64,000 nt of DNA. Source: Thermothelomyces thermophilus ATCC 42464 (Eukaryota > Ascomycota > Sordariomycetes > Sordariales > Chaetomiaceae). A model generated the notes under the pieces. That model ran no database searches, had not been told where the DNA came from, and saw only the letters and a program-made list of their open reading frames with translations. The number at the start of each line of letters is the position of its first letter. Positions within the stretch are counted from its first letter, which is position 1. The position numbers and the translations under genes are program-made. The stretch lies in assembly GCF_000226095.1 (NCBI RefSeq), contig NC_016478.1:2470001-2534000 (forward strand). Direction: 5' to 3'. Positions 4,230 to 62,190 of this stretch are shown here, one piece after another.

Positions 4230-4245
4230 TACGGAGTACTCCGTA
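4230..4245. repeat. Perfect 16-bp palindrome of the dispersed TACGGAGTA family
   Basis: TACGGAGTACTCCGTA reads identically on both strands and is the most complete copy of the short motif scattered through the spacers of this window. It contains inverted CGG triplets separated by six bases, the general layout of sites bound by some fungal Zn2Cys6 regulators. That last point is inference. Confidence 0.85.
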
Positions 4246-5548
4246 CTCTGTCCTGTCGCTGCCGCTTGGTCCTGCTCTAGTGTACGGATCGCTCGCAATC
4301 CACGCATCCTCTCGTCGAATCAAACAAGCCGGCCGAAACCCCCCGGCCGGCCCCATCCGGCCCGAGCTGGCCCTACCCGCATGGCATGGCGCCATGGCGG
4401 CGGGGCAGTGGCACAGCGAAGCTGAACCCCCCGGGCCCCCTGCCCAGCCAAGAACCGACAGCTTGGAACTGCCCCTGCGCGAACAGGGGGAGCCAAAAGG
4501 GGAACAGAGCAAACGCAAGAAGGGGGAGGTGCATGTTTGCGGCGCAGGGGGCGCAAACTCCAATCTTCACATGCACAAAGATTGCAGGCGGGTGTGTTCC
4601 GCAAAAAAAAAAAAAAAAAGCCTCCCCGTATAAGTACGGAGCAAAATCCGTAAAGTCCAATGCAGTAGGTTCCATTGGGAGCGCCCACGTGAGCACCTCG
4701 CAGCAATTTGACAGCGGGAGCCCAGGGATAAGAAAAAAGCTCAATCTCTGCAAGTTTGTCCAGCTGGCCGAGATCAAAAGTGCCAAACTGGGTAGGAGAG
4801 TTGTGTGTGTACGTACCTCAGGTATGTAAGGTACCTAAGGTACCTAGGTACAGTACACTGCCGGGGGTGTGTTACGGAATCTGTTGGGCCTCCGATCCCC
4901 GCCAGCCGATCCAACCGTTCTTGGACCCCACCGAGGCCGGCAGCCCGACCGGGCCGCTGAGGTGCATCGGTAGACGCCAACGGCATGTCCAGCCCCGGCG
5001 GTCCAGAACACGACGGGACGGAGGCCAGAACCTCCACGTCCTCAGCTGGGTAGCTGACCGGTTATACTCGTATCTGGTTCGTATGTAGGATCATCGTCTA
5101 GGTGCCTCACACAGCGTTAGATCGCAGGCGGTCAGGCGAGCATGACGGGTATATCAGGCATCAATATGTTGTTCTTTATCCTTTTGGGAAGGAGGACCTC
5201 AGTTTAGTCAGGAACGGCAACCACACCACAGGAACACTGCGTAGCTAAGTCCTTTGCTTTCTCCTTTCATTTTGGAAACGCGCAAGAAGGGTGAGAAATT
5301 GGTATATTCAACCGACAAGTCCGGCCCCATGCTAACCAAGAACAACAGGGTCCAGCAAACCTCCCCCTTTCTACTCCTCCCCACCATTCCATGTGTCCAG
5401 CAAATGCTACGCTACAACACCACCCTCCGATCCTTCCTCCTTTAACACCCTCCTAACTATCACTTCTTTGTTTCACGACCTTCGTAGAAACCATATCAGG
5501 CTAGGCAGAGCCGGCCTTGAACCAAGTAACCGGCAATCAGTTCGAACA

Positions 5549-8500
5549 TTATATGATGATGAGCTGCAAGGTGAAACAAAGTATAAGTCAGCCGGAACTG
5601 CCGATAAAGAGAGAGAGCGAGAAGGAAGGGGAAAAAGGGGGGGGGAGGGAAGTAAAAACAAAGCTAACCTGAATCAATTTCTCCGTCAACATCACACACT
5701 TGCGATCGACCTGCTCCGGCTGCGCCAGCGTGAACGAGCTGCTGCGCCAAAGTCCGCCAAAGCCCATGTCCTCAAGTATGGCGTTCAGCGCCGCGTTGGA
5801 CCCCTCGAGCGAAGTCGGGAACCGCGGGTTGGATGTCAGCGTATGCAGCAGCTCGTGCGCCGCCTCGAGCGTGGCCGAAGACTGACAGTGAAGCAGGATG
5901 TCGTCCAGAAGGTTGATTATGGGCGCGCATCTTTCACACACAGCAATTAGTACATACATCGTCAAAGATAGACACAAGTGAGAGCCGGGAGGGAAAAAGG
6001 GGGGGGGGTCTAATCTTACAGATGCATAACCACGCCAGGCCGGGCCAGCGCGATGCGGTTCAGCCACTGCAGGCTGCGGAGCTGCACCGCGTCCTCGAGA
6101 TACTGGAAGTCGACCAGTTCAATGGCCGTATTGAGCAGGAGGTCTTTGTCCTTGAGCCGCGCCAGATCCTGCTCGGCGCGCAGCGCCGCCGGATCCAGCA
6201 AGCTTGTCGCACTGACATTGATGCCCGCTGCCCACAGGTGCTCGCGCAGCTCATCGGCTGACGCCGTGCGCGCCAGGATGAGAGCCATGTACGGCGATGC
6301 GGCAAGGTCGGCTACGTTTCGCTCGGCGCGGCTCGGCGTCGCGCGGTCCGACGCAAGGCTGGTCTTGGTGCTACTGCTGGGCATGGTCATCTCCAAGAAG
6401 GTGGACAGGACCCGTAGGGTGGTGGGCTTGGTGACGGCGTCCGTCAGCCCCCGCACGAGACACGCGCACGCGGCGTAGTGGAAGTTTTCCGGGTTGAAGT
6501 GAATCCCGTAGGCTACGTCAAGCGGTATCGCCGCGTCTTCCAGTTGGAGCCGGCCCTGCAACAGATACGGCACCACCTTGTCCCCGCCGACGTACATGTC
6601 GCCGGTCGTGCTGATGTTGGTGAGCACCGCCTCGAGGAACATGGCGGTACAGTTGAACAGGTTCGACGGCACCAGCCGCAGCAGCGAGATGGCGAGCCAA
6701 AAGAGCTGCAAGCCGTAGCGGGAAGCTGACGGTAGCTTGATCATCATCTTGGACAGCGCCGTGATGATGGCGACCAGCATGTCATTGTTGCTGTCGTCGC
6801 CGAAGCGGGCCACGCTGCTCCGTAGGGCGACGAGAACCTGGTACAGCAGGTCGTCATCAACCTCCTCTCGCGCGAGGCACCCCATGACGGTGAAAGCCCG
6901 CGGCTGGATGGCGGGGTTGTTCTGGAAGGCGGTGCTCGCCACCAGGCTCATCCACCGTGAACGCCATGCGTTCGCCAGGTCGACCGACGGCGCCGCGACG
7001 GAGCATGTCTCGAAGAGAATCGTGGCTAGGTTCTCGGTCGCGGTCAAGGTCGGACCGGCCTCCTGGTTCGTCGAGATTGACGCTCCGTCCCGGATGAACG
7101 TGACCGAGTTGAGAAAGATGTCGTTCTTTGGATCCGAGAGCGTCTCTATCGTGGCCTTCAGCTTGCTGAGCCTGTTCTCGTCGAGCGCGAACGAGGTGCA
7201 CGCCGAGTGGATCGTGTTGATCAGCAGCCGCTGGACGACTACCCTGACGTCCGGCATGCCCGTGTTCGCGAGCATCGTGACGATGTGGAAGATCTCCGGC
7301 ATGTACATCTGCGCCTGGATGGCGCTGTCGAACGACAGCACCTGGCAGAACTGCAGCAACACGCAGATCTCGTTCCACACTGCGTTGTCGGGCAGGTACC
7401 TGGTCGTCCGCAGCGATGAGCGGTTCATCGCCTTCCGCAAACGCGTGATGACCTTGCCCCTCAGGGTGATTGTGCCAATCGCGCGGGCAATCGACGTCAG
7501 GGTCTCGGTCTGCTCGTCTTCGAAGCCGAGACTTAGCGCCGCCTTGATGATCTCGTCGAGGAAGATGTCCAGCAGCACCTCGTCCTGATGGATCACAGGC
7601 CACACCGACTGCTCCAACACAAACGTCAGCGTCGGGTCCGACAGCGCAACGTCTATCAGCTTCCGGAACAGCGAGGCGATCTTTTCCCTCCCCTTTTCGC
7701 CCTCGGCCTCGCCCGCCAGCAACGACGTCCGCAGCCCCGGGATCCACGGCGCCATGTAGGCCAAGCTCAGCGGCTTCTGCTCGTCCAGGAAACTGTCCCA
7801 ACCGACAAAGAACTCGTTCAAGAAATCCGCCGTGAGCTGCGGCTCCGTCTCCGCGAGGCTCTTGCTGATCTTGATGATGAACTGCGATGGGTCAAGCGGC
7901 ACCGAGATCTCCCTACTACTCAGGAGTTGAGACGCGGCCTTAAACTTGAAGGCCTTGCACAGGGCGCTGAGCAGGTTGTACGACGACAGCCGCAGCACGG
8001 GGTCGGAAGTGGCGAGATTCGTCAGAGCTAGGTTCAGCAGCGTTCCTGGGACATCCTGAGGCCGGATGAGCCGCTCAAACGACTTTGTCGCCCTCGCGTC
8101 CTTGGCGTACTTGATCTTGGCCGCGCGGATCGCCTGCAGGATCTCGGTCTTTTTAGGGCTGGTGAAGTACATGACGATCCTGCCGCTGTCGGCCCTGAGG
8201 CCGAATGCCGAGTCGTCTTCTGTCTGGATCGAGGTGGGCGCCTCATCGACATCGTTTAGCCGGAAGATATCGTTGACGGTCGTGCTTAGGCCGAAGCCGG
8301 GTATCTCCTGCTTCTTAGTCGTGGTGACCTGCACAAACTGGCTGCCGACCTTGATGACAACGTCAACTTTGCCCTTGGATTTGGATAACCTGGTGACCGG
8401 CTGAAACAGGTAACGCTGGTCTTTCACCACGTTGATTGTCTCCTTGGGCAGGTGCAATTGGCTGAGGTGGAAGTGCACCTGTAGATCGTTGACGTTGCCG

Positions 8501-9961
8501 ATGAGATGGTACTCGACATTTGCCGGGTTGAACACGCTCGACTCGTTCTTGGACGCAACCCGGAGCATCCGTCTGAAGCATTTCCTGGACGCGCTATTCA
8601 GGTTGTAGATGTAAATCCGTGCGAGTTGCTGGGTCAGCTCCCGGGGAGCAAGCGACTCGATCTTGTAGAACAGCTCGTCCTTGGGTTCGTCATGCCCGTT
8701 GTAGTACGTCGAGTCGATAAGCAGGCCGAACGGGCGGTGCCACAGTCGGCTGGCAATCTTAAGGTAGCAGTACAACAACGTGTCGAAGTCCATGGAATCG
8801 CCGTCGATGTAGCGCAGGATGATGCAGATGATCGACAACCCATCTTTGCTCTCCCCGCCGTCGTAAACGGCACGGGATGTGAGGAACGACTCGGAGGTCT
8901 TGAAGGCGTTGCGGAGCATGAAGTCCTGGAACCTGGAGTAAGCCGGCGGGCTGTTTGTCGAGATGTGCGGGCGATTCCACGTCACGGCCAGGGGAGGCGG
9001 CCCGAGATTCATGATGAGGTTCCTCAGCGGCTCAAGTACTGGAGACCGACTCCTCGTCGACTCGGCCGGGGACCGCACAAACTCCCTCTTCTCCTTGGAG
9101 GCGAGCCGCTGGCGCACATGGTCCCAATGTTCGTACAGAAACCTGTGGAGGGCCACGCAAGAGCCAAACTCAAAGGACTCACTCGGTTTAGGTGGTGCCT
9201 CTACAGCAGCTGGCGCAACCTGCTTAAACTGTCAGCCAAACATCTAACCAAAAGGTTAGCAAAAGATAGTAGCACCGGTAGACGTACCGAGATGTCCCGC
9301 AGAAAGGTGGTTACGTAGTAGATGTTGTTTGTCAAAAAGTCAATCAACGGAAACATATAGGGTTCCTTGGCGCCGAAGAGAACGTTGTTCGCTAGGTTCT
9401 GAATGACCTTGGCGATGAGCAGCAGCCCTCGGCGCATCTCCTTTGAGGGCGGTGTTGCCACCAGGCCCTCGACCTCGGGTGCGACAATCGCGGGGCAGAA
9501 AAAGCGCAGGAAGATAAACGCCCCGACAGCCGTGTACTTAGCGTCGGGGAACCTCTCCACGACCGCTTCCGATATCTGCGCTTGGTCAGCACATCAGACT
9601 CGCCAAGGGATCTCGGCAGCCTCGACATACGATGTTGCAAATTCTGCGAAACGACGCAGGAATGTTCGACGCCGAGGCGCAGATATTGTCAATGAAGACA
9701 CGCGCCACGATCTGTAGGTTCTTCGCGTTCGTCTGCAGTTCCTCGGGTGAACCGACCCGGGCTGGATCAAGCTCCAGGCTCAGGTCCTCGGCGGTCATCA
9801 TGAGCCTCTCGACGACGTTTTGAAGCGTGTCTCTGAGGTAGCCGGCACCCTTCCACTTGGCGTAGATGGTCAACATCTTGGTTGCCACGCACGTCCGCCG
9901 GAGCAGTTCCGACTCGTTCTCTGCGTTCTCGTCAGCTAGAGAGTCTCTTTTGTTTTTCTTT

Positions 9962-9992
<31 letters not shown>

Positions 9993-18947: not shown

Positions 18948-20247
18948 GGTGAGAGACTCGTCACGGCGTTACTCCTCAAGTGTAAGCAGCCCGTGGTCGA
19001 TGCTGGGGTTCGGAAAGCGGTCAGTCTGATTGCGCCTAGCCAGGGCTATATATTGCAAAAAGCAGCGCTTGGTGTGGGTGATTGATTGGAAGCGTCGCTA
19101 CGTTTATGTACATGAGGAGGCAATTCGATTCGAAGTGGTCGACGAGGCGAGGTGATTCGGGGAGTCGCTCTTCATACAAGCAGTCTGTTGGCTGTGAGTC
19201 GAATCGAAAGCGAACCGGCGAACACCAGATCGTTTTCCCGCAGAGGAAGAAAACGAAGATAAAAGATACTCGTTCCCTCGGATAGATCGCGAGAGAAAGA
19301 TGCTCTCTTTGATCCGATTCCCAGGACTAGCCGGGGAGGATTTCGGATGTTGAAAGGGAAAGAAAACGGGAGGCGATGCGACAAAGGCGTGCGCGTTTCG
19401 TAGTCGCAGGCGAACGTGCCCTGCTTTCCAAGAAAATCTTCCCGTATTGGTCGCTCGTGGGCTACTAGTAAGTGGTGGCGGAGCTTACAACGTGTAACTG
19501 CTATTGCGATACGGAATTCTTGTATTTCGTACGGTGAATATGGATGCGAATACTTGTAACGTACGTACTAAACCTGCCACTCCGTACTCCGACAAGAGAT
19601 CGCTCCCTACTTCGTACGTTGGTATCGTGTCAAACACACACATAAAACGTACCGGATACATTGACCCGTAGGTAAAGTATGGAGCATTTCCGTACCTTAC
19701 CAAGTACGATACTGATATTCCGTATGTACGGTAATTGAGTGCACACGGGGAGACTCGAAAACGGTGAAACTGGTTGAATGGCCCCACTGTATTTTTTTCA
19801 CAGCGGAGCTTGACCGCAGCTTGCAGGTTGCATCCCGGTCAAGTCCCCATTTCAACGACTCGAGCTCCACGACAGCGGGCAGTGTACGGAATACTGCGTC
19901 TTTGCGTAGTTGGTATGTACATACACCTGTCCACACCGCAGTGCCTATTTGCTTGGCTTCCCGCACGACAATCACGACAGATGCGAAAGGGGTGTTGTGG
20001 GATTGGTCATTGGTAGGAGAGAAGGAATCGTGAAACGGTGCGGTCTCTAACGACGACTGAAAAGAATCGAAATCCCAGACTCGAACGAGGACAGGCTACT
20101 CCGTAATCCGTACACTACTACACTATCAGACAGTTTCCACACCTGACAACCGGTCGGTCGAGCCGTCGCCGCAGAACAGAGCCGATGCTCCTCCATGGCA
20201 GCTTCTCATAGCACTTCGCCGCCCCGCCGCCCGCTAGTACCGACGCC
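18948..20247. other. Divergent promoter region between rat1 and uso1
   Basis: Holds both promoters. TACTCCGTA at 20097-20105 and TAATCCGTA at 20104-20112 overlap; further GTACGTAC and TATTCCGTATGTACGG stretches lie at 19560-19735. Two short upstream ATGs (20185 and 20195) precede the uso1 start. No gene seen. Confidence 0.65.
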
Positions 20248-23367: not shown

Positions 23368-24187
23368 CAGGGTAACGACAATGGAGACGAAACACAGGGG
23401 AGGGGGGAAGGTTTTACAAATGTCGTTCCCAAAACGGTGAGTTCGAGGGCTGTGTGAGCTTGTCCAAATATAAATACGTCAAAAGAAGGGCGAGGGTATA
23501 TATTGTGTGCATTTTACTAGCGGGCACGAGAGCATCAATTCTACGGATTACTACTACCACAGTTACCACTGCGGCAAGACTTGGCCAAGGTGGCTGGACT
23601 GGCGCACAGAGCTCACTATCCCGTCTCATCAGCAACGAGGAGCGACAGAGACGGGAATGGGTTCGGAGTGCCCTGAAGCTGCTCAAAGAGGAGAGAAAAG
23701 AAAAAGAAAAGAAAAAAATATCTGGGATGTATGATGAGCAAGGAAAGGGCACTGAGTTGGTCCAAGACAAACTTCTGAAACACCGATCGGTATGGACATG
23801 TATGCGCAGTATCAGTATTGGATATATATTGCTGCTGCAGGTATGCACAACCATAATTACATACAGAACATACTTGGGGCACCGGTTTGGGGTGCTATAT
23901 AGATTTAGTTGCAGAGCCTCTGCAGGCAGGTTGTCTTTGCCCCCCGCACCATTTTCGAGTTTTTGATCCACACTTGGATAAAACTCGACTTCCCGAAAAA
24001 GAAGGGCCGCTTTCTTGCGTTCCGCCTGCACATTTCAACTTGTTGGGAAGCACCTTTTTTCCAGCATTTGACTTGGATTTTCATTTTCTTCATTTAGCAT
24101 TATATTTATTCCCTGATTTCTTGCACTCATATTTTTATGTTAGAAGTGTCTTGCGAAAGGGAGGAATAATTATACCAGGACGGCAAC
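23368..24187. other. Spacer between uso1 and rmt3
   Basis: Contains the uso1 3' UTR and the rmt3 promoter. The 130 bases before the rmt3 ATG are AT-rich with many T runs. No conserved reading frame in either strand. Confidence 0.6.
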
Positions 24188-28833: not shown

Positions 28834-29737
28834 GGTTCGGGGGCGTCGGGTCCCGCCGAGAAGTGTTGTGGGCGCGTCTTGGCTGGGGATTGGTTCGAGA
28901 TGAAATGAGAACGACGGAGTAGGAAAAAAAAAACGAAAAAGAAAAAGAAGACAAAAAGGGAAAAAAAATGGAGGGAAGAAAGGGCAAGTGGAATTACCGG
29001 CCGGCTACATTAATGGATCGGCGAAACCGGGTCGAACTTGATTGATGCCGGCAATGCGGCCGTCGATGATGGTAGATGTAACTAGCTGAAGTGTTCGGAG
29101 TTAATTATTAGTGTAGTGGAAGACGCCCTTGCGATTAGGTACCGAGACCAGTGCAATGCTATTGACTGATCAACCTAACCGAAAAAGGCAGCCGCATTCA
29201 ACACCAACCTCGCCTTTTTCAGTTGCCCATGCCCGAGTCCTCCGTGCGTGTTCACATCTTCGGAATATTTTTGTGCATGATCCGTTTATCGTGCGTATTC
29301 GACAAGAGGCACCCGATGGTGCGAGGAGGAAACACACTACCTCGTCCGTAGCTGTATTTTGTACAGTACATATGCGGAACAGCAGACAACATGAGAGTTC
29401 TAGCACAAGTTTCTGCCTGAATGAAGCCAAGGGAGCTAACTAACTATGGCGAATGATAACGGATATTTACAGTACATACAGTACATACAGTACGTGATTG
29501 AGCGCCGTCTTGCCAGCAAGGCAACTATGACTTGATACAACTACTCCGTACGGCATGAAGAACCCCCTCTCCCCCATTTTTTTTTACCTGCCATGTTGTG
29601 CTCAACCTACAACCTCTTTACTCCAATTTGTACATCAAAAACAGAACCAAGCAACGCTACCAATGCAAGAAGATTACATAAGGGAGACTTCGTAACCAGG
29701 CGAACCTACCCGACCCCCATTCGCACCCATCCCCCCA
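28834..29737. other. Spacer between the OPT gene promoter and the rav1 3' end
   Basis: Holds the OPT promoter and rav1 3' UTR. TACTCCGTA occurs at 29542-29550, and a 9-bp tandem repeat at 29471-29493. No gene seen. Confidence 0.6.
29471..29493. repeat. Tandem AGTACATAC repeat
   Basis: Unit AGTACATAC twice plus AGTAC. It belongs to the GTACATAC-type runs that recur in the spacers of this window. Confidence 0.85.
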
Positions 29738-34561: not shown

Positions 34562-35750
34562 CCCTGGTTCTGTTCTATCGGTAGGGCTTGTCCTGCAAGG
34601 ACATTTCGAATTTCCGGCGTTTCGAAAAACGGGCGGGGAACTGCGAAGGCTTCCCGGCAGTTTGGCTGTCTCGCGAGGACGCCGCGTCCGAACGAGGATG
34701 CGTTTCGTCGGGTTAAGGGTATGTAACTGGGAGGCCAATTGCCACTCAGTGGCTGCAACCGTGGATGCAGCAGATACCTTAAGTAAGGTATACGGAAGCT
34801 ACCTAACTCCAGGACGATGCGGGAGCCGTGCGCGTGCGTGACAGGGCCAGATCCACTATAACTAAAACCAAGCACTATGAACGCTCCGCAAGTAATCCGT
34901 ACTGTACTGTACAGTACAGCACTTCATCATGGGATACACTACGGAGTAGTTACTGGCATGTTATGATTACGCTAGTGCTCCCCGGCCGACGATCACAGGG
35001 AGACCCTTTATCGGGCAGGTTGCTCTCTTCTGCAGAGCTCTTGCAGGACTCCGGAGCTTCAACGGCACCGCTCTCTTACTGATCTCAAGTATTTAGTGCT
35101 TCAGAATTTTCCAGCAGTTTCCTATCCCAGTGCAACCAGACATTGGGCGGTTAGTCTGGTATGTACATACATACACGCGCAACAATACGCTACGCTATCT
35201 TGCTCGTCATCTGAAGCGCGTGTGCTGAATCGACAGAATCTGGGACCACTTGCTGCTCGCCTTAGATAATAAAGGCTCGGCCGGCATCCCCTTCAGGAAA
35301 CCCTCCAGTCCATACCTTGTCCGGAATACTCAGTCCACAAGTGATTCCCTGTGGGATGGGAACGCACGTGGATCGAGCCGGCTGCCTATTTCGAGAAGGG
35401 ACTCAGGGAGGGTGAATGAAGTATTTCTGCAGCGGGAAGTAGACTCGCATAGGTTATCCTCGGGCCTACATCGTCAGAGATGTCTGCTATAATATGATTG
35501 ATTATCATCAAAGACGACTCAGGACCCTAGTTCAAGGTTCGAGTCAAGTGACTGTGTGATATATAGATCCCAGGACGCCTCCACTCCTCCCAGCAAGTTA
35601 TCGTGCCCGGCTACCCTTTATACGTTTATACCCGCGCCATCAACCGCACTGACCCGTGATCCGTATTCCTACGCCCAGCCCTTGCCATATACAACCCGAT
35701 TCCCGGACCGCAGAGTCAACAACACGAACACACACAAGAACAGAAGGACA
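34562..35750. other. Spacer between the rav1 promoter and the tag1-like 3' end
   Basis: Holds the rav1 promoter. TAATCCGTA at 34893-34901 runs straight into an 18-bp palindrome (34902-34919), followed closely by TACGGAGTA at 34940-34948; a GTATGTACATACATAC run lies at about 35159. No gene seen; a GGTTCGAGTC near 35535 was checked and is not part of a tRNA. Confidence 0.6.
34902..34919. repeat. 18-bp perfect palindrome CTGTACTGTACAGTACAG
   Basis: Reads identically on both strands. It lies between two copies of the dispersed TACGGA-type motif, upstream of rav1. Confidence 0.9.
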
Positions 35751-40807: not shown

Positions 40808-41021
40808 AACGAGGAATGGTTGTTACAGAGATTCCAATCAGACATTGCTTTGAAATGGCAGGCGTGATTTCAGGAGTTGGGTCCCTTAGAAAAAAAGTTC
40901 AATACCAAGTGTATTTTCTCAACCAACTTAGAGATGGCCGATCTTGACTCGCACCAGATAATTTTATGATTAATACATGATGAAAACATTTGACCCACAT
41001 CCGCCGTACATGTTAACTACG

Positions 41022-42054: not shown

Positions 42055-42794
42055 CTTCAGGAATCAATCGAGAGCCCGGAGGGCTTGTCCGCTGAGGAAA
42101 AAGGCGCAGTCCCGATGTTCACCCCTCAATCTAATAACACTCGAATGTCAGAGGAGGATCGTCACCTGGGTGACTCACCGTCGGACTGGCGAAGAAGAGG
42201 GAGAAAATGATGATCGTGTCACACCGCGGTAAGCAGCGCCGGTTGTGGAGGCTGGCGAGTTCGCATTGGCCAATTCTAACGCCCGAGTCCGGCGCAGCTC
42301 CGACTCCGGTGCATAGTAGGTCCGTGCACGGCTACACTACAGTACGGAGTAGGCCCAGTCTCTCCAATCTCCACGTGGCCCAGGTCAAGCTCACTCCAAT
42401 GCGGACACGAACGGAGAATCCATCTACCGTCTCCGTTTGTGGGGTGGTTGGAACCGGTCGACTACTTGTACGACCCGAAGCTCTATCCGTTTTAAGGTCC
42501 AGAGATAGCCCTCTGATAAGCCGTCGCTTCGTACAGTGTTATTCACGCCATTAGCGGATACTGCACTGTACGGCCTGGGCCCAACAGCCTTGTGGATTTT
42601 CCGGACTGGGTTACTCCATATTCAGAAGTTTTGCGACAACGGGAGCTCACGACACCTCCTCTTATTAATTACATTAGTGGCGTCCCACGATCAGTTGCAC
42701 CGCAAGTGAACAGCTGATAGAACATTGCTCATATTCTTCAGTTTGGCGTTAGACCTTCTTTTTCGATCGGTCCTTCGCGGAGCATCTACACGCA
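42055..42794. other. Divergent promoter region between ilv6 and the KH-domain gene
   Basis: Holds a perfect TGACTCA on the ilv6 side and one TACGGAGTA at 42343-42351 about midway. No gene seen. Confidence 0.65.
42171..42177. promoter_or_regulatory. Candidate Gcn4/CPC-1 site upstream of ilv6
   Basis: Perfect TGACTCA, 117 bp upstream of the ilv6 ATG. Branched-chain amino-acid genes are common targets of this regulator. Match seen; binding inferred. Confidence 0.6.
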
Positions 42795-46739: not shown

Positions 46740-49700
46740 GAGAGCTCGAACACGAATGAACGGCGAGAGGAAGGTGAGAGGTGAGTGATGGGCTCTAGCA
46801 GTCCGCTTATTCATGGGCTACGCCAGAGGTTCTAAAATGGCAAGAAACCAGCGGGTTCGTTGAACGGCAGCTGGTTGGGACTGACGACGCCGCGATATTG
46901 ATTGCTCTTTAGCAGCTTGGGGTGGATCCGGTCCCGACGAGCACCAAGTAACGTAGACGGTGCTCGTTGAACCGAGTAACTTTTGTTTACAGAGAGCGCA
47001 GTAACATCGCCCTAGCATTGGGACGATTGCAAGGCTGTCCTTCGTGTTAGGTCCTCCAGAGGACCCTCTGACGCGAATCCACCAAGTCGGAAGAGAAAGC
47101 GACATTGGGCGAAGCTACCTCAGTTAGCTCCTCGACTCATGGCCAAGCCTCGGAAGAAAAGGCCAACAAATTCATGTCGACTGTTCCAACGCTTGCGTGG
47201 TACCAAAAGATGGACCACGTGCCCCCTGTTCTCTCGCTATCCTCCTGATGTGTTCCAAGTACGGATCGGTCAGGTTGGCTGGCCCAGAGCCTCGGCATCC
47301 CGACATTCCGGGACGCAATCTTCTTGGCCGACAGGCCGGCGTTTGATATTGGCATGATTAATCCGTACGCCAACCAGAATTCCCACATTGTCTCGGCTCC
47401 TCCCGTGGACACAAAACGCGCCTCCTAGGTTGCCGACGGGAAGTGGGGGCCCGCTCGAGTTCGCTCTACCCTGTTTTCTTCGACATCGTCTTCAACTGCC
47501 CGCCGGCTTTCCCAATCTCCTGCGTACGCAATCATAGCTTGCGCCTCTGGAGATCCACGTCGTGCAAGTGGAGCTTGTAGCCGCTAAAAGTTCCCTACTT
47601 CCCTACACTACGAGTAAGGGACGTACTTGAAATCCATATCGCGATATGGCGCTCTACCCTTCTGCCTACGTTACGTAGTATACGCACCACTACTACTACT
47701 ACAGACGACCACCCAATAAGTAGGCTGTCTATAGCCGAGTTATTTCAAGCCTCGAATAACACAACGGCCGGGATAGGACAGCAGGTAAAACCTGGTTTCC
47801 GGAGATGCCATGATAGTGTACGGATTACATACTGTATCACAGATTACTCCCGTACATACATACACTAGAGTAACAGTCAGCAGCATCATCAAACGGGTCG
47901 GCAAATCCCAGGCTCCGTTTGTACCATTTAGGCAGATGCTGTGTCATCATCGTACGTCGCTGCTGTGCCTCACTCAGGCGCCCGAAAAGGCTCGGTTTAG
48001 CAGATTTGGGAACAAGGAAAAGGAAAATCTCAACAGCATGCTGCCACAGACAATTGTGGAAGGCGACCAGTTTCGGGAGCTATGTTCGGCCTGGTGTCTG
48101 CTGGCTGGATCCGAGTCTCAACTAACAGTTTTATTAGAGTATTAACCTGAAGAGTTGCCTGTTTCGGACACTTCTTTGACCGGCCTCACCAGCTGGTTGG
48201 TTCACCCCCTCGCCAAGAGGAAACAGTCCCGTCGTTAACATTAATATACTGCACATCAATCGCAAGATGAGTTGAGCGTTGGTTCTTGCATGCGGTATCT
48301 GCCGTCAACACGATTTTTTTTTTTTTTGGAGAGGGGGATGTAGCTATGGATAAAATCAGCGGCTCGGGCACACGAGGCGCTTGCGCTCCTATTCCGTGCA
48401 TACACTACGCGCAGGTACGTACCCTACGTACTGGGCAAGCTACACTACCACAGTACAGAGTGTAATTCGCACACATCTCCAGCAGTGGGGAAGTCGAACC
48501 GTGGGAGGACGATCAGTGACGAAGCCTGCCCGTCTGCCCGGGGGTCCCTGATCTGTGGTTGCTCTCCACACACACACGAGTGAAACTTCCTTGGAACCCT
48601 TGATATTGCCGAGGAAGGTTGCATTCCCACGAGTCCGTATCGGGTCTAGATCGTCGCCCGGGACGGCTGCGATGCGATTGTGAGAATCCAACCAGATGTC
48701 CGGAGGAGTATGTACAGAGTACGGATTACTAGTGTACTCCGTACTCGTCGGCGTTTGCGGGATTACCGAAGAGGGTATCGGCAGCATCTCTCTGCATCCC
48801 ACCGCAATCATCGAGCTCGCTCCCCTGCCCTGCCCCTGGAGTGACGGTTGGAGGTGACCTAACAAACTACTTAGTGTATCTAGGGAACGGTGCAGCATGC
48901 GGCTGTCGTGGTGGCAGCGAGCTGTGTCGCATCCGCGCGTGTTTCAGGTCCATTCTATGTATCTTGTTCATCTTTGTTGATCGACCGAAGGCGCCCTGTC
49001 CGCGAGATTCTGTTGCCCGTCCGATGCTAAAAGGCCAAAGACGCCGCCATCGATCTGGCGGGTTCGCGATCCCCCGCTTTTTGATGTTTCGTGACGTGGA
49101 GGACAGGATCTTGAACGACGTGGAGCTCCCATGCGGCGCCCCAACACAACAATCGAAAAAAGAACAACAGCTTTGCTTCAGCCAGGTCTTCGGGGGGTCG
49201 GCCAACTCAGGTTCGATCATATCTGTCCCACCTTTACAGAGTAGTTATTCAGACGCGTCGGCTGCATGGAAGGAATCCGCTGCACGAGGTAGACGCTGGC
49301 GTAACCCCCAAAAAGGGGATCGCCCATCCATCTTTCCATCAACCAGCTGTACGGGATGCAGCGTGCTGTAGTGTACGGAGTAATCCGTACTCGGTACACT
49401 ACATTACTGTGTACTGTGCGTACCCAAGGTAGGGGCGTTGGCTGATGTGTAAGGGGTACCTAGTCAGCCAATGACAGCTTCGAGAGTTAACGCGTACGAA
49501 CGGCGCGTTAACCTGCATGAAGGCCACGCGAAAGGCAGTTATCGACACCCATTCCGAGAGCGATGGGATTCGACACTCGTTACTGCAGTACTGTACTGTG
49601 TAGTGTAGTGTAGGGGACCGAAACCCACAACACAAGAAGAGAAGAGAAACCGGAACGCTTTCGCGATACGCCTGTCGGCACCCCCGTCCGCTCTCTTGCA

Positions 49701-54927: not shown

Positions 54928-56020
54928 GGATTAATGTTGAGCCCCGGTTAATGGACCTCTTAGGTTGCCTAAAACAAAAAGGAGGGGGGGGATTTTATGC
55001 TCGGCCTGGGGTTGGGTAGCCCGAGGATGTGTGCATAGCAACGGAAGCGTTGGGTTTGGAGCGTGAGTTTGCTTGGCTAAGGAGCGACGGGACTCCGAAA
55101 GAACCCCTCTTAGAATCAATCGGCCATCGACACGGAGTTTTTATCATGGGGCGTTTTCTAGTCCGCGAAATTGGTTGTTTTGGGGGGGGGGGGTTGGTGG
55201 GGTGGAGATTCCGATGGTATGCCGTCTCTCGGTTTGTCTCGAGAGGAACAAGGCATGGGGAAAAACAATGTGTAACATGTTTTTTTGTACGATAGGAGTT
55301 GTAATCTCTCTGTTTTCATTTGCCCTTTCCCGTCCTCGGGAGGGGGAGCATTGGACGGGTGGGGACTCGGTAGGACGGATGGGTGGAAGAAGGTCGCATA
55401 AAATAAAGGATAGCTCGCTGAGTATCAGCATCTCTTTTTTTCCTTTCCAAGGTTTTACACGTTTTAGAGAGATTAGGGGTCGTTGGTTGTTAGTTAAGCC
55501 GGACGCCCACTTGATAGATGGTGGACGGGTGGAGGCGAGCCAGAAAACAAGCCACGAGCCTTTCAAGTCAGATTGAATACAAGGTTAGATATATCTCGTC
55601 AAACACCATGGCCTGACAGCATGGCTCAACAACTGGACAGGCTATGACGTTGGTCCAGACGGCCTTGACAGGTTTGTGGGTATCTGACGCGGATCTTGCA
55701 TTATTATGAATTCCCCCTTCTTTCCCTCCGTCGTAGCCGTCCGGGTCAACATTCCGGCTGCTGACATGCGTTCACACGTAAGCACAGAGCGTATCCGCAA
55801 AACGTGGAGCAAAAAAAGTTGCTTCCGAGAGCACGCCAGCTGGGCTTTGAATAGTGCAGAAAATGAATCCATTCCCGGTGTCATCACGGAACCGCGCAAG
55901 CCATTTCCCTGACCTTTCCTGGCCATTCCATACAAAACCCGCTCGGCTATATCCTATCAACGCCATGCTTTCCCGGCTAAACCCATGCCGACTTTGCTCA
56001 TCCAAGAATCCCTACGCCCT
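54928..56020. other. Spacer between two convergent genes (DENN protein and ypi1)
   Basis: Both 3' ends face this region. It contains a G12-13 run near 55180 and T-rich tracts. No gene and no copies of the dispersed TACGGA-type motifs seen. Confidence 0.6.
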
Positions 56021-56654
56021 CTACGGCCCCTGTGGCCTCTCGTCCCCTCTCCCCTTTCCGCTGTCATTGTTCCCATCCTTCCTCGGTTTGTCGTACCTCG
56101 GCATCTTCTCGTACGCATTCGGGCTTGGCTTCCGTCTCCTTGACCTCTTCCCATGACCCCTTCCTCGGTGCAAGTGAGAGTGGCCGTCACAATCATGCCC
56201 ATGGTCGTGCTCGCGGTCTCGTGATTTTTTCCCGCTCCCGCTGTCGACGTCGGAGTCGGAGTCGGAGTCGGAGTCGGACGAGTCGGACGAGTCGGACGAG
56301 GAGGAAGAGTCGCTGGACTCGTCCACGCCGCGCGGGCGATGGTAGATGCAGCAGACTATATTGTGTTGAACAACCGGTGTCAGTCACGCTCGGCCGACAT
56401 ATATGAGTGGGTGATTAGAAGTTGTGCGTTCGAGTCTGTATACCTTTAGACTTCTTCCTCCCTAATCCCTCATTGTCCACCACATCGGACCGCCATTGTA
56501 CCGATCTCCTCGTCGGTGCGTGTGCGCCGCGCAGACGGAGGATGGCTTGCGGTTGGGTCTGGGTTTGCTGGTTTGTGGACTGCGCGGTCTGGGTCTGGCT
56601 GAGGGTTGATTGAGATGGCTGTTGTAGCCGCGTTTGTGGGCTAACAGAGGCCAT
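56021..56654 (-). CDS. ypi1: Ypi1-type protein phosphatase 1 regulator (PPP1R11/inhibitor-3 family)
   Basis: Small, mostly disordered nuclear regulator of protein phosphatase 1 (Glc7). Two exons, 56654-56444 and 56355-56021 (about 181 aa). Signature: RSVQW at 50-54 (the RVxF-type PP1 docking motif) followed by DVVDNEGLGRKKSK and, across the intron, VCCIYHRPRG (71-80); this block defines the family. The N terminus is Gln/Ser/Thr-rich; after the core come Ser/Asp dipeptide repeats encoded by a 6-bp repeat, then a His/Lys/Arg-rich tail. The intron is essential, since the first frame stops 10 codons after the donor. Length is typical of filamentous fungi. Confidence 0.94.
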
Positions 56655-58173
56655 CTTAGTAGTGAGAGTCAGGGATGTTACGGGCGTAGTTGTCGGTCAA
56701 TATTGAACTGCGGTGACCTTGCGTGGTCGGCTATGATGGCGATTGTTTGCTAAGTACTCCGTACCCCGCAGTCGTTTGTTCGGAGATGTTGTTCGGAAGA
56801 GAAAGTCGAAATGGCTATCAAGGTTCACGGCAAACCTTAGATATACACCGAGGGAGGGACAAATGTGTTTAGGCAGCCGACTGCGCTTTTGCACTGAGAA
56901 CTGGGAAGCGGATGATCAAGAAATTTGGAGGTCGGCCAAGTTGGGTACAACTCGAACCTACATACTCCGTACTGTTGCGAGTCACCCCACGCCGCAATGC
57001 CAGCGCACAGACGTTCGGCAGCCGGTTGTGTGGGGGGGTGACGATCTTTGGAAATGACCCCAGTATTCTGGAACCTTGTCTCGGACCCTGGGACCGCCTG
57101 GCGTGACCAAAGGCATGCACAATGAGCATGGCACCTTGCATGACAATGTTGTCCGCACCTGAAATCATGTCTGCTGATGGACTCCGAAAGAAGCTATGGT
57201 TGATTGCTCAAATGACATGTGTGGCGGGGCTCTTTGATGGAAGCTCTCTAGAAATCATTATACTAATTAATAATAGGCCATTTCGAGCAAAATCCACTTA
57301 CACATTTATTCTGCCCTACGTCCTCTAATGTAAATAAAGAAAGTATTCTCAAGCACAGACTTACCTTTAACCCGTAAAGACTAATCTGTCCACAGCACTT
57401 ACACGTGTATCTTCCAACTGCTCCTAACGCTGGCAGCTTGTGCTGTCAGGTGTTGTCCTGCTGCTGCTTCCCGATGCGGGGATGAGGCTTCGTCTGTTTG
57501 GGTCACTCATAGCTTAGAGTAACAAGCCACTGAACTAGGAGAAGGACCTTCAAATGAAGCACTGAGTCACTCCTTGTGTTTCCTTCGTGAGATGAAGTGC
57601 CAGTGAACGTGCCAGTGAACGTGCCACCAGTCTCGTCTTCTGGACTACGTCGGCCAGCGGCCTGGTTACTCTGCCGACTTTCGCGGTTTCCCGTAAGAAC
57701 AGAGCGACCATGAAGCCCTTCACGTTCACCCTCACGACCCGTTGCAAATCTCGGCGTCGTGACGTGATCCCTCTTCTTCTACTCCTACTAACCACTTAAT
57801 CCCATCTCATTCAAGGCCCGGCGAGCAGTAATATAGATCTAGGTTGTGTCTCACTGCAGGAGGCAACCGCGGAAGGCAAGCAGCATGCCGAGCTTGCAAA
57901 CAGGCAACTTGAACTCTTGCCGATACAGTGTTTTTGCTTTCCACTAGTGGATGAATGAAGTCACTTACGGCAACCAAAAAGGCAGCCACGACCCACGCCC
58001 ATCACTGAAAGCTGGTCGTGCGAGGCCGGCTGCGACTTCCCTTCCTCGTCGCCGCCCACCTTGACTGACTCAACCCACTTTACCAGCGGACCGAGATAGT
58101 ATCGTCGTCTTGCGCGTTCTTCCCATCCAAGAAAGGCAGTCGCTGAGGCAAGCAGGCCCCTTCCTTTCCCGAC
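56655..58173. other. Divergent promoter region between ypi1 and the DUF726 gene
   Basis: TACTCCGTA at 56755-56763 and 56963-56971, a 12-bp tandem repeat at 57597-57626, and TGASTCA matches at 57563-57569 and 58066-58072. No gene seen. Confidence 0.6.
57597..57626. repeat. Short tandem repeat, 12-bp unit GTGCCAGTGAAC
   Basis: Two full copies plus the first six bases of a third, in non-coding DNA. Confidence 0.85.
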
Positions 58174-60533
58174 ATGATGGGCGTCTTTAAAGACGAATCG
58201 CAGGCGCCCGATGCTGATAATCAACCAACTCCCCACGCGGTCGAGAATAAAACAGAGTCAGCGACAGAACATCAGCGAACTGTCGGCGAACACGCTACCG
58301 AAATGCCCCCGGGCGGCAAGCCGCGGCTCAACACGCTGCGGCGCGAGGTCGACTTAAGCTCGCTTTTGAACTCCGGCGAAAAGACCGAGTTGACGGCGCT
58401 CGTTGGCAGGGTGACCGAGTCTATGCTCAAGGATCTCACCCAGCTGTTCGATCCCGTTCGTCCCGACGGCAAGGCGGAGGCAACGCGCACCACCTTCTGG
58501 AGCAGATTGCCTAATTACCTCAAGGATCTGAGCCTGGGCGACCCTTCGAATGGCGCCCAGGCCCGTGCCAACCACGTGGAGAACGTCAAGCCCTCTAGCT
58601 CCAAGAAGACGGGTAAGGCCCAAGACAAGCGCGGCGACGCCCACAGTGCTGCTGGCGCCCCGAACCGAGAAGAGAATGACGTGGTGCCGCGGCTTCAGGA
58701 GCTGAAGAAGGAGGCTCTGCTGCATTTCAAGAAGTGGCAGGTGGCTGTCAACAAGAGGATCAACGACATCTCGATCAAGAGAAGCCCGGATTCCCAGCCT
58801 GACCCGGCATCTGCTGGCTCAAAAAAGCGTCCGCCGCTCAATAAGAGAGGTAAATCAAGCGGTAGGGCTCTCCCACCCGGCGCTCGGCCTTTCAGTCTGC
58901 TGACGAGGTCACAGGTCCAAAGACTGCATCCACGCCAGCCATTATCAGCCTGGAAGCGGACCCTGTTCTGGTACAGCTCTACCCGCCCGTCCCGACAACG
59001 CTCTCATCTTGGCCCGCCGAGAAGAGGTGTCTCCTGCTTCACGCGTTGCTTCTCCTGCTGTTGTCCATCGAGAATTATGGCGCGTATACCCGCACTCTGC
59101 TCCAGAGGATGACATCGGCTCTTCAACTGCCTCTGCGCGTCCTCACCGAAGACGAGCTCAGGGTGTGCGGTGCCTTGGCCCAGATTGCCAAGGACATCCC
59201 ACCCGAGTTTCTGGCACCAAAGAGGAGTGAGGATAACAAACCCCCTAAACGGTGGAGGGCTGGACTGGGAGGAACATCTGCAGCCACTATTCCGGTGTCG
59301 GCCAGCGGCATGGCCGCAGCACTTGAGGCAGCCCGTATCGGATCCGTTCTTGGTATTGTTGGGATTCCGGGCACGGCCGCAGCGAGTCTTCTTGGTATTA
59401 TGGGCGAAAATAGCCTGGCTGCAGGGCAATTGTTTGGCATATATGGCACCAGGAACCCCGGCAAGATGATGGATCACTACCTCAAGGATGTCGGTGACTT
59501 CGCCTTCCTACCGCTCCGCGGTTCGACGGGCGAGAATCTCGAGCTTGGGAAGATCGCCCCCGAAAGCCGCCGTCTGCGAGTCATCCTAGGCATCAGTGGA
59601 TGGCTGACAAGCAAGGACGATGCAATAAGTCCTTGGCAGTGCTTGGGTCACCAGAGCGAGGTGTACGCTGTCCGATGGGAGCTCGACGCCTTAGGGAAGC
59701 TGGGAAGCTCGTTCGATACGCTTGTGCGGAGCGCGGCATGGTCCATGGCAAAGAAGGAAATCATGGCTCGGGCCAGTTGTGAGCCACGCACCAGGCCCCC
59801 TAGCCGCTCTGCCATGATGGCTAACCAGCATGGGCCAGTATTCTCCAACTTGATAGACAGTTACTGGCCGGAGAGCCTGCTCAGGATGAGCAAGATCATC
59901 GACAACAATTGGAATAACGGCATGGTTCGCGCCGACAAGCTCGGTGCTGCTCTCGCCGACGTCATCATGAGCAAGGCGCAGGGTGAGCGCGGAGTTTCGC
60001 TGATCGGTTATAGTCTCGGTGCCCGTGCCATCTACGCCTGTCTGATGTGTCTCGCCGAGAAGCGAGCGTTTGGACTCGTAGAGAACGCCATTTTGATTGG
60101 GACGCCGGCACCATCCGAGCCTCTGGCGTGGTGTGCCATGAAGAGCGTGGTGCCTGGTAGGCTGATCAACGTGTATTCGGAAAACGATTACATCCTCGGG
60201 TTCCTCTATCGGACTGGTAGCATCGAGTTTGGCCTTGCGGGTCTGCAGCGCATCATCGGGGTTGATGGCATCGAGAATGTGGATGTCACTGCTAAGGTCA
60301 GTATCCACCCTCGATACCAATACCTCGTGGGCAGCATCTTGCGACACATCGGTTGGGAAGACACGGACACGGCACAGATTGCCAGGGACGAGGCCGAGAT
60401 GTCTTTCTATGACGACCGCAACCGGAAGCACGAGGAGCGACGGGACGCAGTGGAGCTTAGTAAAGTGGCAGCCAACAAGGAAAATGGGCAGGGGATTATC
60501 CGGACCAGAATGCGGAAGAAGAACAAGAAGTGA
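58174..60533 (+). CDS. DUF726 alpha/beta-hydrolase membrane protein (TMCO4/Mil1-like)
   Basis: Member of the DUF726 family (human TMCO4, yeast YFL034W/Mil1), predicted lipase-like hydrolases tied to internal membranes; no substrate can be stated. Two exons, 58174-58849 and 58915-60533 (about 764 aa). The first ~230 residues are charged and low-complexity. Exon 2 starts PKTASTPAIISLEADPV and reaches a hydrophobic run (LLLHALLLLLLSI), then a Gly/Ala-rich membrane-like hairpin (AALEAARIGSVLGIVGIPGT). The hydrolase core has ILGISGWLTSKDD, and the nucleophile elbow GYSLGAR with Ser about 592, then NAILIGTPAP and NVYSENDYILGFLYR, which carries a likely catalytic Asp. The Lys/Arg-rich C terminus is cytosol-like. 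Start is the first of two adjacent ATGs. Confidence 0.9.
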
Positions 60534-60899
60534 GATGGCGGGTCAGATACGGTTGTCGGGTTTGCTTGAGGCACACAAGTCTTGGAGAGGCTGGCTTTAG
60601 TAGGAGGATAAGCGGCAGAGAAGGTTATGGTATCTATGTTCATTGTATTAGCACGCGGCGCTTTAGCCCCAGTGGGCATTATCTGAGAGGACTGACAGCA
60701 TAGCCTGATGATGATGATGATGATGATGCTTGGGCCCCTGTAGCGTCGACTGATTTGTTGGTGACCAGGACAAGCCCGAATAAGATGAGAACACCGCTTC
60801 TCTCCCCGGAGAAGCACTGAAGAGGGTCCAGAATTGAACCCATAGCGTTTGCCTCGCTTCAACGTCCTTTTGGCGTTCTGCGCGCGGCACACGCCAAAG
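60534..60899. other. Short spacer between convergent DUF726 and gatC genes
   Basis: Contains 3' UTRs and an ATG-repeat microsatellite at 60706-60728. Nothing else seen. Confidence 0.6.
60706..60728. repeat. Trinucleotide (ATG)n microsatellite
   Basis: About seven to eight perfect ATG/GAT units in non-coding DNA between two convergent genes. Confidence 0.9.
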
Positions 60900-61613
60900 T
60901 TACGACCCTCGGTCGAACCCTTCCACAAACCCATTGCTCGTAGCAGCAGCGCCCTTCCCGCTCCTTACAACGAAATATCTCCCGACTTTTTCCGCCGCAC
61001 ACCCCAGAACATCCCAGTCCTCCACGCCCTCGATCTGCTTCTGCCCCTGCCCGCCTTTTCCCCCAGACGTCGTCGCCGTGCCCGTCCTCCTCCTCCGCGG
61101 GCGTCTGCAGCGGCCCACGACCTCCTCCTCGGCCAGCGCGTGCCGGAGGGTGTCCACGGTGACGGTGGCCTCGCGCAGCCCCGCGGGTGTCTCGTCGCGG
61201 ATCGAGGGGAGCGGGTCGACGCCGTCGGTGTCGACGCGCTGGACGTCGCGCACAAAGTGCAGCTGCGCGTCCAGGTCGGCCAGCATGCGGCGCGCCTCGG
61301 CGTCGTCCGCGGGCTGCGGCAGGGCCGAGAGGCGGAGGAGGTGGCTTAGCTGGTCTGGCGTGATGGAGGGTTCTTTTTGTGGTGGTTGCGATGATGAAGG
61401 CGATCGTGACGCGGACGGCGGGAGGAGGGTGCGGACCGACCAGGTCGGCTTGGAGAGGAGGGCGTAAGGGTCATGTTGCGGCCGGTGGGCGTCGTGGTGG
61501 GACGGCTGAGAGGAGGACGAGGAAGACTGGCGGGTTTGGCCGGTTTGGCGGGATAGGAGTCGCAGTGTCCCCGCGAGGCGCGGCAAGGCGCGGCACGGCC
61601 ACGGGCTGGCCAT
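60900..61613 (-). CDS. gatC: Glutamyl-tRNA(Gln) amidotransferase subunit C, mitochondrial
   Basis: Part of the GatCAB-type amidotransferase that converts Glu-tRNA(Gln) to Gln-tRNA(Gln) in mitochondria. Single exon, 237 aa. N-terminal ~35 residues are Arg/Ser/Leu-rich with no acidic residues, consistent with a targeting presequence. The GatC core lies at about 82-165: SITPDQLSHLLRLSALP, then LHFVRDVQRVDTDGVDPLPS and RDETPAGLREA, matching the helix-loop pattern of bacterial GatC (about 95 aa). After the core is a basic/Gly-rich insertion, then a conserved-looking end (WDVLGCAAEKVGRYFVVRSGKG). The upstream open frame has no better ATG. Confidence 0.9.
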   Translation of the reverse strand: MASPWPCRALPRLAGTLRLLSRQTGQTRQSSSSSSQPSHHDAHRPQHDPYALLSKPTWSVRTLLPPSASRSPSSSQPPQKEPSITPDQLSHLLRLSALPQPADDAEARRMLADLDAQLHFVRDVQRVDTDGVDPLPSIRDETPAGLREATVTVDTLRHALAEEEVVGRCRRPRRRRTGTATTSGGKGGQGQKQIEGVEDWDVLGCAAEKVGRYFVVRSGKGAAATSNGFVEGFDRGS

Positions 61614-62190
61614 GTTTGCTGCTGCGACCTTGTCTGGTTTGCGGTATTGGATCGTTTCCCGAGAGGCTGAGACGAGATAGGTTCGAAGCTTAAGGCGGAG
61701 CTGCGAGCGTACAGTACTGCTACGTTGGTGTACTCTGTAGTGTGCTATCAAGTACACGTACACCTAAGGTTGGGATTAAACTTTGGTTCGTGGACGGAAT
61801 TTACAAATTATTGGATAAAAAGACCGCTTTCCTACTTGGACAGACTTTACTGCGTACGGAGTACGGATTACACTACTGATGTGCGGATCCGTATGTACGG
61901 TACATACATACAAGTAAGTACTCCGTATGGTAATCTTGAAATCACGCTAAACTGATAGGGAAGTTCAAACGGGACCCAACGCGCAACACCTGGCGTCATA
62001 GCTTCAGCCCTGTAAGCTTTGAGAAAGTCCAGTTGGCCCACACGCCCCGCCCCCTCTAACGCATAGGCACGGCTTGAGCGACTGGCGGTATAATACACTA
62101 CAGCAACGCGACCACACGATCCTTGATTGACAACGAACCCCCTCCCCTGTGTACCAGAACCCTTCAGGAAATCACTGAAACGACGACACC
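61614..62190. other. Divergent promoter region between gatC and sec17
   Basis: Carries a dense group of dispersed motifs: TACGGAGTA at 61855-61863 overlapping TACGGATTA at 61862-61870, a GTATGTACGGTACATACATAC run, then TACTCCGTA at 61919-61927. No gene seen. Confidence 0.65.

What the first reader, a model, noticed from the sequence alone, without database searches (positions are those of the whole stretch)
4230..61927. A dispersed 9-bp motif family, TACGGAGTA/TACTCCGTA plus TACGGATTA/TAATCCGTA, restricted to spacers
Seen: TACGGAGTA or its complement starts at 4230, 4237, 20097, 29542, 34940, 42343, 48735, 49374, 56755, 56963, 61855 and 61919 (12 copies). The variant TACGGATTA or complement starts at 20104, 34893, 47359, 47819, 48720, 49381 and 61862 (7 copies). 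None lies in a modelled exon or intron. For one 9-mer on both strands about 0.5 copies are expected by chance in 64 kb. Copies often overlap or pair (20097/20104, 48720/48735, 49374/49381, 61855/61862). The two sets share the core TACGGA. The full palindrome contains CGG-N6-CCG, a layout used by some Zn2Cys6 regulators; function is inference. Alternatives are remnants of a short mobile palindrome or a structural element.
Basis: partly seen in the sequence, partly recalled or inferred. Interest (0 to 1): 0.75.

Follow-up and report, generated by a model that had tools for sequence, protein, structure and literature searches.

The report
Dispersed fungal promoter word, probably regulatory
A nine-letter DNA word is repeated thousands of times in this mould's genome, was never found inside genes in the sample checked, and is most likely a protein docking site for gene control that has already been met in other moulds.

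Summary
Observation real, slightly under-counted: 13 TACGGAGTA and 8 TACGGATTA in the window, 0.12 expected of each. The window lies in a 38.74-Mb, 7-contig genome, fungal by its genes. There TACGGAGTA occurs 2845 times against 163 read backwards, TACGGATTA 2287 against 433. In a 314-kb sample 0 of 51 copies are coding. Position 7 takes mainly G or T. Copies overlap at a 7-bp step, direct (142) or inverted (89), at least tenfold over a rough expectation. The preferred longer word GTACGGAGTAC (688 against 11) is the SomA ChIP-seq/EMSA motif of Aspergillus fumigatus; TACGGAGTA is also a ChIP-seq motif in Ustilaginoidea virens and the Tardis Starship target. Best reading: a widespread cis-regulatory site, bound by SomA/PtaB or a C6 zinc-cluster protein. 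Not proven here: promoter bias is only suggestive (2 of 47 in convergent spacers; p = 0.05, or 0.22 with clusters collapsed), and a DNA-level origin of TAC/GTA palindromic words remains a rival. Mobile-element remnant is disfavoured. New here: genome-wide numbers, G/T degeneracy, pairing, co-clustering with other TAC/GTA words. Known kind; moderate interest.

The parts
1999..2007 (+).
4230..4245 (.). TACGGAGTACTCCGTA, perfect 16-bp palindrome of two overlapping copies; 1 of 29 in the genome
20097..20112 (-). TACGGATTACGGAGTA, direct 7-bp-step pair (copies at 20104 and 20097)
23542..23550 (+).
29542..29550 (-). TACGGAGTA
34893..34901 (-). TACGGATTA beside a GTACTGTA/TACAGTAC inverted repeat
34940..34948 (+). 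TACGGAGTA
42343..42351 (+). TACGGAGTA in a divergent spacer of 755 bp
47359..47367 (-). TACGGATTA
47819..47827 (+). TACGGATTA
48717..48746 (.). quasi-palindrome GAGTACGGATTAC-tagt-GTACTCCGTACTC holding TACGGATTA (48720 +) and TACGGAGTA (48735 -)
49367..49403 (.). quasi-palindrome TGTAGTGTACGGAGTA-atccg-TACTCGGTACACTACA holding TACGGAGTA (49374 +) overlapping TACGGATTA (49381 -)
56755..56763 (-). TACGGAGTA in a divergent spacer
56963..56971 (-). TACGGAGTA in the same divergent spacer
61855..61870 (+). TACGGAGTACGGATTA, direct 7-bp-step pair in a divergent spacer of 790 bp (Gta3-like gene / SNAP-like gene)
61919..61927 (-). TACGGAGTA in the same divergent spacer

Best explanation
TACGGA(G/T)TA, in its fuller form GTACGGAGTAC, is a dispersed cis-regulatory word in gene spacers of this ascomycete. 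It is read by a sequence-specific nuclear protein; the known candidates are the SomA (Flo8/Som1 class)/PtaB complex and a C6 zinc-cluster protein. Single copies serve as one site. Copies overlapped at a 7-bp step, direct or inverted, serve as double sites. With over 5000 copies, and functionally mixed genes beside those of the window, it acts more like a general promoter or chromatin-organising site than a switch for one regulon. Shown here: number, sequence constraint, coding exclusion in the sample, pairing, and identity to a published bound motif. Inferred: protein binding in this organism, promoter function, and the general-factor role.
For: Counts of 2845 and 2287 against 163 and 433 for reversed words. 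GTACGGAGTAC 688 against 11 reversed and about 178 if flanks were independent; it is the reverse complement of the SomA motif GTACTCCGTAC, reported for 119 of 476 ChIP-seq peaks, with EMSA and a mutated-probe control (PMC7667024 passages). SomA also binds a meaB promoter fragment holding it in vitro (PMC10900910 passage). TACGGAGTA is one of six ChIP-seq motifs listed for UvCGBP1 in U. virens (PMC8344781 passages). Noncoding in 51 of 51. Position 7 genome-wide: G 2845, T 2287, A 673, C 325, against reversed controls 163, 433, 502, 154. Direct pairs 142, inverted 89, against rough expectations of 5-14 and 3-7. 20 of 81 listed TACGGATTA places lie within 500 bp of a listed TACGGAGTA place, 3.3 on shifting (+ strand rows of contig 1, not corrected for spacer restriction, which would roughly double the expectation). 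One PtaB-type LIM_bind match; SomA/Som1 relatives of N. crassa and M. oryzae are in a published alignment (PMC4631450 passages).
Against: Promoter localisation is weak. By spacer length alone 2 of 47 copies in convergent spacers has p = 0.08. Against composition-matched words (147 of 1029) p = 0.05, and 0.22 when copies within 100 bp count once (2 of 36); the distance of such clusters to the predicted gene start does not differ from control (p = 0.45). Position within tandem spacers is not significantly skewed (n = 26, p = 0.22). Other TAC/GTA words are as enriched and cannot all be SomA sites. In A. fumigatus 357 of 476 SomA peaks lack the reported motif, and UvCGBP1's EMSA-confirmed site is AGGGG, so recovery in ChIP may be indirect. 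One-mismatch neighbours are mildly raised (356 per word against 206) and the three CpG-changed words more so (1473 in all against 466 reversed), so some decay or looser use exists. Nearby window genes show no common theme (15 of 19 scanned segments had a Pfam match). Binding, expression and conservation of sites were not tested in this organism, and its SomA gene was not searched.
Confidence: 0.58

Rival explanations
1. A family of short TAC/GTA palindromic words (TACGGAGTACTCCGTA, TGTATGTACATACA, GTACTGTACAGTAC, ACACTAGTGT and the like) arises in spacers through replication or repair on quasi-palindromes (template switching), with no bound protein; coding selection removes them from genes.
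For: Several such words are equally enriched. Noncoding 12-bp palindromes 134 against 54 in order-3 simulations, coding 44 against 45.5. 25 of 50 copies have another TAC/GTA word within 100 bp, against 12.5 +- 2.6 for same-spacer random positions. Foldback score >=9 at 9 of 50 copies (18%) against 0.4-0.9% of controls. Coding exclusion alone does not separate this from a regulatory site.
Against: At most about 9% of the 5132 copies are in overlapping 7-bp pairs, and 41 of 50 sample copies show no strong foldback. GTAC as a tetramer is hardly enriched (1.07). A mainly G/T choice at position 7 is not expected from such a process. Part of the palindrome excess comes from AT-rich stretches (four-letter palindromes 81 against 49.5). 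The 9 foldback copies are 5 distinct loci.
Confidence: 0.2
2. Remnants of a short mobile element or MITE whose ends carry the word.
For: Dispersed, both strands, often paired. 3 of 51 copies overlap (2 wholly) a stretch repeated elsewhere in the sample. CpG-changed forms TATGGAGTA, TACAGAGTA and TATAGAGTA together number 1473 against 466 for their reversed words, as ageing copies would give.
Against: 48 of 51 copies show no repeat over the word in 409-bp neighbourhoods. Flank columns beyond the first two or three bases carry at most about 0.4 bits. The changed forms are not symmetric as decay would make them: in the first 100 places there are 68 exact, 15 TACAGAGTA, 4 TATGGAGTA, 13 TATAGAGTA.
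Confidence: 0.06
3. Target-site footprints left by Starship insertions (Tardis-like).
For: Tardis target site TACGGAGTAG, 9-11 bp direct repeat, word overrepresented in Af293 (PMC12153272 passages). DUF3435 captain-like matches exist here: 5 matches, all on contig 6, 2 of the 5 with in-frame stops (counts are lower bounds).
Against: Thousands of copies against 5 captain-like matches. No TACGGAGTA in the 4 fetched DUF3435 loci, one TACGGATTA place in the two that overlap; the loci are 3.2-3.6 kb and element ends were not traced. The paper suggests that the word may be some other highly conserved genomic sequence that Tardis targets.
Confidence: 0.03
4. A nucleosome-organising or replication-related structural element (a fungal general regulatory factor site without a classical activator role).
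For: Copy number near one per two genes (gene number recalled), mixed neighbouring genes in the window, and recovery in ChIP-seq of unrelated factors.
Against: No chromatin data available here. It overlaps with the main reading and differs only in mechanism.
Confidence: 0.13

Closest known systems
SomA-bound motif GTACTCCGTAC, Aspergillus fumigatus (PMC7667024, PMC10900910; passages seen)
   Same: Identical 11-mer on the other strand, GTACGGAGTAC, 688 copies here; the 9-mer core is the same.
   Different: Different class of ascomycete (if the recalled identification is right); here the T variant is nearly as common; binding untested; direct and inverted 7-bp pairs not mentioned in the passages I read.
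Tardis Starship target site TACGGAGTAG / overrepresented CTACGGAGTA in Af293 (PMC12153272; passages seen)
   Same: Same 9-mer, genome-wide overrepresentation, same suspicion of a transcription factor (C6 zinc-cluster) site; JASPAR UN0291.2 is cited there, I did not see the matrix.
   Different: No Starship shown at any copy here.
TACGGAGTA ChIP-seq motif of UvCGBP1, Ustilaginoidea virens (PMC8344781; passages seen)
   Same: Same 9-mer, in a filamentous ascomycete, in a ChIP-seq set with 74.5% of peaks in promoter regions.
   Different: UvCGBP1 is a C2H2 protein whose EMSA-tested site is AGGGG; the 9-mer may mark a partner.
Zn2Cys6 (C6 zinc cluster) inverted CGG sites (general knowledge, recalled)
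   Same: TACGGAGTACTCCGTA contains CGG-N6-CCG.
   Different: Only 29 perfect G/G palindromes beside 2845 TACGGAGTA copies; extended 9-11 bp specificity beyond CGG.

Membership tests
SomA-bound GTACTCCGTAC element | the 11-bp word | tested here: met
   688 copies, reversed control 11
SomA-bound GTACTCCGTAC element | location upstream of genes | tested here: inconclusive
   45 of 47 in divergent or tandem spacers, but p = 0.05 raw and 0.22 clustered against matched words, 0.08 by spacer length
SomA-bound GTACTCCGTAC element | bound by SomA | not testable with these tools
   needs ChIP or EMSA in this species
SomA-bound GTACTCCGTAC element | SomA and PtaB encoded | tested here: inconclusive
   one LIM_bind (PtaB-type) match, E 7.4e-62, one stop inside the six-frame match; SomA itself not searched
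Zn2Cys6 inverted CGG site | CGG triplets at fixed spacing | tested here: inconclusive
   89 inverted and 142 direct 7-bp pairs, at most about 9% of copies
Zn2Cys6 inverted CGG site | bound by a C6 zinc-cluster protein | not testable with these tools
   prediction cited in PMC12153272 only
MITE / short mobile element | copies share sequence beyond the word | tested here: not met
   48 of 51 copies lie in no stretch repeated in the 314-kb sample; flanks near background
Starship (Tardis-type) insertion repeat | word flanks an element with a captain gene | tested here: inconclusive
   0 TACGGAGTA in 4 short DUF3435 loci; element ends not traced; the copy-number mismatch makes it an unlikely source

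The most novel reading that the evidence does not exclude
TACGGA(G/T)TA is the recognition word of an unrecognised general regulatory (pioneer-like) factor shared by filamentous ascomycetes. It would set open chromatin at thousands of promoters, work with companion words (GTACATAC, GTACTGTAC, GTAGTGTA, CACTAGTG) in compact modules, be recovered as a by-product in unrelated ChIP-seq studies, and be exploited by at least one Starship as a landing site.
Probability: 0.3. Interest if true: 0.78.

Novelty: new member of a known kind. Interest (0 to 1): 0.5.

Why it matters
Ten searches of an open-access library were made; several listings were capped, and TACGGATTA was not searched as a term. Genome-wide numbers, the G/T rule and the 7-bp pairing in another fungus make one conserved, very abundant site plausible. 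They also give a simple test of whether filamentous fungi have a general promoter factor that has not been named.

Tried and rejected
Rejected or not helpful. (1) Chance or composition: rejected by shuffles, reversed-word counts and permuted words. (2) MITE: flank BLAST and flank information, with the limits told below. (3) A decay cloud as evidence: the 26 other one-mismatch neighbours average 356 copies per word against 206 for control words, and the three CpG-changed words sum to 1473 against 466, so a mild cloud exists; it does not decide between looser binding and ageing. I lean only on the position-7 pattern and, weakly, on the asymmetry of the CpG-changed forms (15 against 4 in the listed rows). 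(4) General GTAC enrichment: only 1.07. (5) Orientation relative to the downstream gene in tandem spacers: 15 against 11 for all copies, 15 against 6 with clusters collapsed; not tested further, no claim made. (6) viral-contig scan for GTACGGAGTACTCCGTAC: 0 hits, uninformative. (7) ATAC-seq paper PMC8419926: neither CGGAGT nor TCCGTA in its main text; its supplements were not consulted. (8) SntB paper PMC11537487, FvCon7 paper PMC12430421 and AtrR paper PMC6414702: in their main texts the words occur in primers or probe primers. (9) Fitting copies to a regulon: neighbouring window genes are mixed (19 segments scanned, 15 with a match).

Limits. Gene models come from a home-made codon model, not an annotation; 4 of 51 copies (window 1999, 4230, 4237 and one in C1) lay outside modelled spacers and were dropped from the 47. 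The sample is 314 kb of 38.7 Mb and includes AT-rich gene-poor stretches; searches use the 50 copies in GC >= 45% context. Species name (Thermothelomyces thermophilus) is recalled from genome size and contig number, not tested. Place lists were cut at 100 rows by the tool, so, the pair-order tally and the form tally use listed rows only. The expectation for 7-bp pairs is a rough density estimate. Papers: passages only for the nine named by PMC number in this report; all others were seen as search listings.

Full report
WHAT IS THERE. The two 9-mers are in the window as described, plus one missed copy of each: TACGGAGTA at 13 places and TACGGATTA at 8, against 0.12 expected for each by dinucleotide shuffling. 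The window is G000:C7:2470001-2534000 of a 38,744,216-base genome in 7 contigs. Of 19 coding segments scanned, 15 match Pfam families, eukaryotic and in part fungal (XRN exonuclease, Uso1, Rav1, Tag1, Gta3, TRAPPC13, DENN, SNAP and others). Size and contig number match what I recall for Thermothelomyces (Myceliophthora) thermophilus; that name is recalled, not tested.

GENOME-WIDE. TACGGAGTA occurs 2845 times against 163 for the same letters read backwards; TACGGATTA 2287 against 433. The second (frequent occurrence in exons) fails in the sample: with a self-trained codon model over window plus 250 kb of the same genome, 0 of 51 copies overlap coding sequence, where length share alone would give 6e-13. 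Coding exclusion by itself does not prove function, since other noncoding repeats share it.

ANATOMY. (a) Position 7: G 2845, T 2287, A 673, C 325, with reversed controls 163, 433, 502, 154, i.e. 17, 5, 1.3 and 2.1 fold. G and T are a transversion pair, while the transition partner A is near its control; this looks like base readout by a protein, or two words used side by side, rather than decay. Against this, other changed forms are not absent: 26 further one-mismatch words average 356 against 206 per control word, and the three CpG-changed words sum to 1473 against 466 reversed (4318 minus 2845, and 629 minus 163). (b) Flanks: G before and C after are preferred. GTACGGAGTAC has 688 copies against 11 reversed, where 178 would follow from independent flanks. 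Beyond the first two or three bases flank columns carry at most about 0.4 bits, and 48 of 51 neighbourhoods of 409 bp show no repeat over the word within the sample. (c) Pairs: TACGGA(G/T)TA overlapped at a 7-bp step occurs 142 times in direct and at 89 places in inverted order, reversed controls 0; rough expectations are 5-14 and 3-7. At most about 9% of copies are in such pairs. In the first 100 listed of the 142 direct pairs the order G-then-T is commoner than T-then-G, 33 to 6 (tallied by hand; p = 1.4e-5), in line with the preference for G before the word. (d) The two variants share neighbourhoods: 20 of 81 TACGGATTA places lie within 500 bp of a TACGGAGTA place, against 3.3 after shifting, at most 10 in 500 shifts (listed + strand rows of contig 1 only). 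(e) Larger modules: 25 of 50 copies have another TAC/GTA word (GTACATAC, GTACTGTA, GTAGTGTA, CACTAGTG) within 100 bp, against 12.5 +- 2.6 at random places of the same spacers, and 9 of 50 copies sit in a strong foldback (score >= 9) against 0.4-0.9% of controls, though these are five distinct loci.

WHERE IN SPACERS. Of 47 copies in modelled spacers, 26 are in tandem, 19 in divergent and 2 in convergent spacers; by spacer length p = 0.08. Against composition-matched words (147 of 1029 in convergent spacers) the deficit has p = 0.05, but 0.22 when copies within 100 bp are counted once (2 of 36); the distance of these clusters to the predicted gene start does not differ from controls (p = 0.45).

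WHAT IS KNOWN. Ten paper searches were made. In A. fumigatus the SomA ChIP-seq motif is GTACTCCGTAC (119 of 476 peaks), confirmed by EMSA with a mutated-probe control (PMC7667024, passages), and SomA binds a meaB promoter fragment with it (PMC10900910, passage). This is the reverse complement of the 11-mer preferred here. TACGGAGTA is one of six motifs listed for UvCGBP1 ChIP-seq peaks of U. virens (PMC8344781, passages). The Tardis Starship of A. fumigatus targets TACGGAGTAG; its authors note that CTACGGAGTA is above the 99.99th percentile of k-mers in Af293, suggest a site such as a transcription factor site, cite a C6 zinc-cluster prediction, and call it a subject for future research (PMC12153272, passages). 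SomA relatives of N. crassa and M. oryzae are in a published alignment (PMC4631450, passages), and this genome has one PtaB-type LIM_bind match.

MECHANISM. Most likely the word is a cis-regulatory site read by SomA/PtaB or by a zinc-cluster protein, used singly or as overlapping pairs, at so many places that a general role is more plausible than a single regulon. Shown: abundance, constraint, pairing, coding exclusion in the sample, identity to a published bound motif. Inferred: binding and effect in this organism. The strongest rival is that TAC/GTA palindromic words in general are generated by a DNA-level process: other such words are as enriched, and 12-bp palindromes are in excess in noncoding but not in coding DNA (134 against 54; 44 against 45.5). 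The mainly unpaired state of the copies and the position-7 rule speak against that as the whole story. Mobile-element remnant and Starship footprint are unlikely as origins.

VERDICT. Observation confirmed. Interpretation partly supported (regulatory site likely; specifically a Zn2Cys6 palindrome not shown). It is a new member of a known kind: the word is in print for other ascomycetes, while the genome-wide grammar given here is an extension. Interest is moderate, higher if one general factor lies behind it.

Noticed in passing
window and G000:C1:1000001-1100000, C1:2500001-2600000, C5:1000001-1050000: Other noncoding words as enriched as the finding and palindromic or half-palindromic: GTACATACA (37 noncoding, 1 coding), GTACAGTAC (17, 1), TGTAGTGTA (18, 0), ACACTAGTG (12, 1). 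TGTACATA resembles a Puf-protein RNA site (recalled), not tested.
   Followed up: partly
window 49367-49403 and 48717-48746: Two 30-37 bp quasi-palindromes built from these words, about 620 bp apart in one 4.6-kb tandem spacer.
   Followed up: partly
G000:C6:2937976-2939277, 3817740-3818159, 2826043-2826423: Five DUF3435 (Starship captain-type) matches, 2 of the 5 with in-frame stops, all on one contig.
   Followed up: no
G000:C1 about 2580000-2600000 and C5:1000001-1020000: AT-rich (GC 0.37-0.39) stretches with few or no modelled genes, sharing a 408-bp repeat at 85.5% identity, RIP-like in look.
   Followed up: no
genome-wide, listing: Direct pairs TACGGAGTACGGATTA outnumber TACGGATTACGGAGTA 33 to 6 among the first 100 of 142 listed.
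   Followed up: partly
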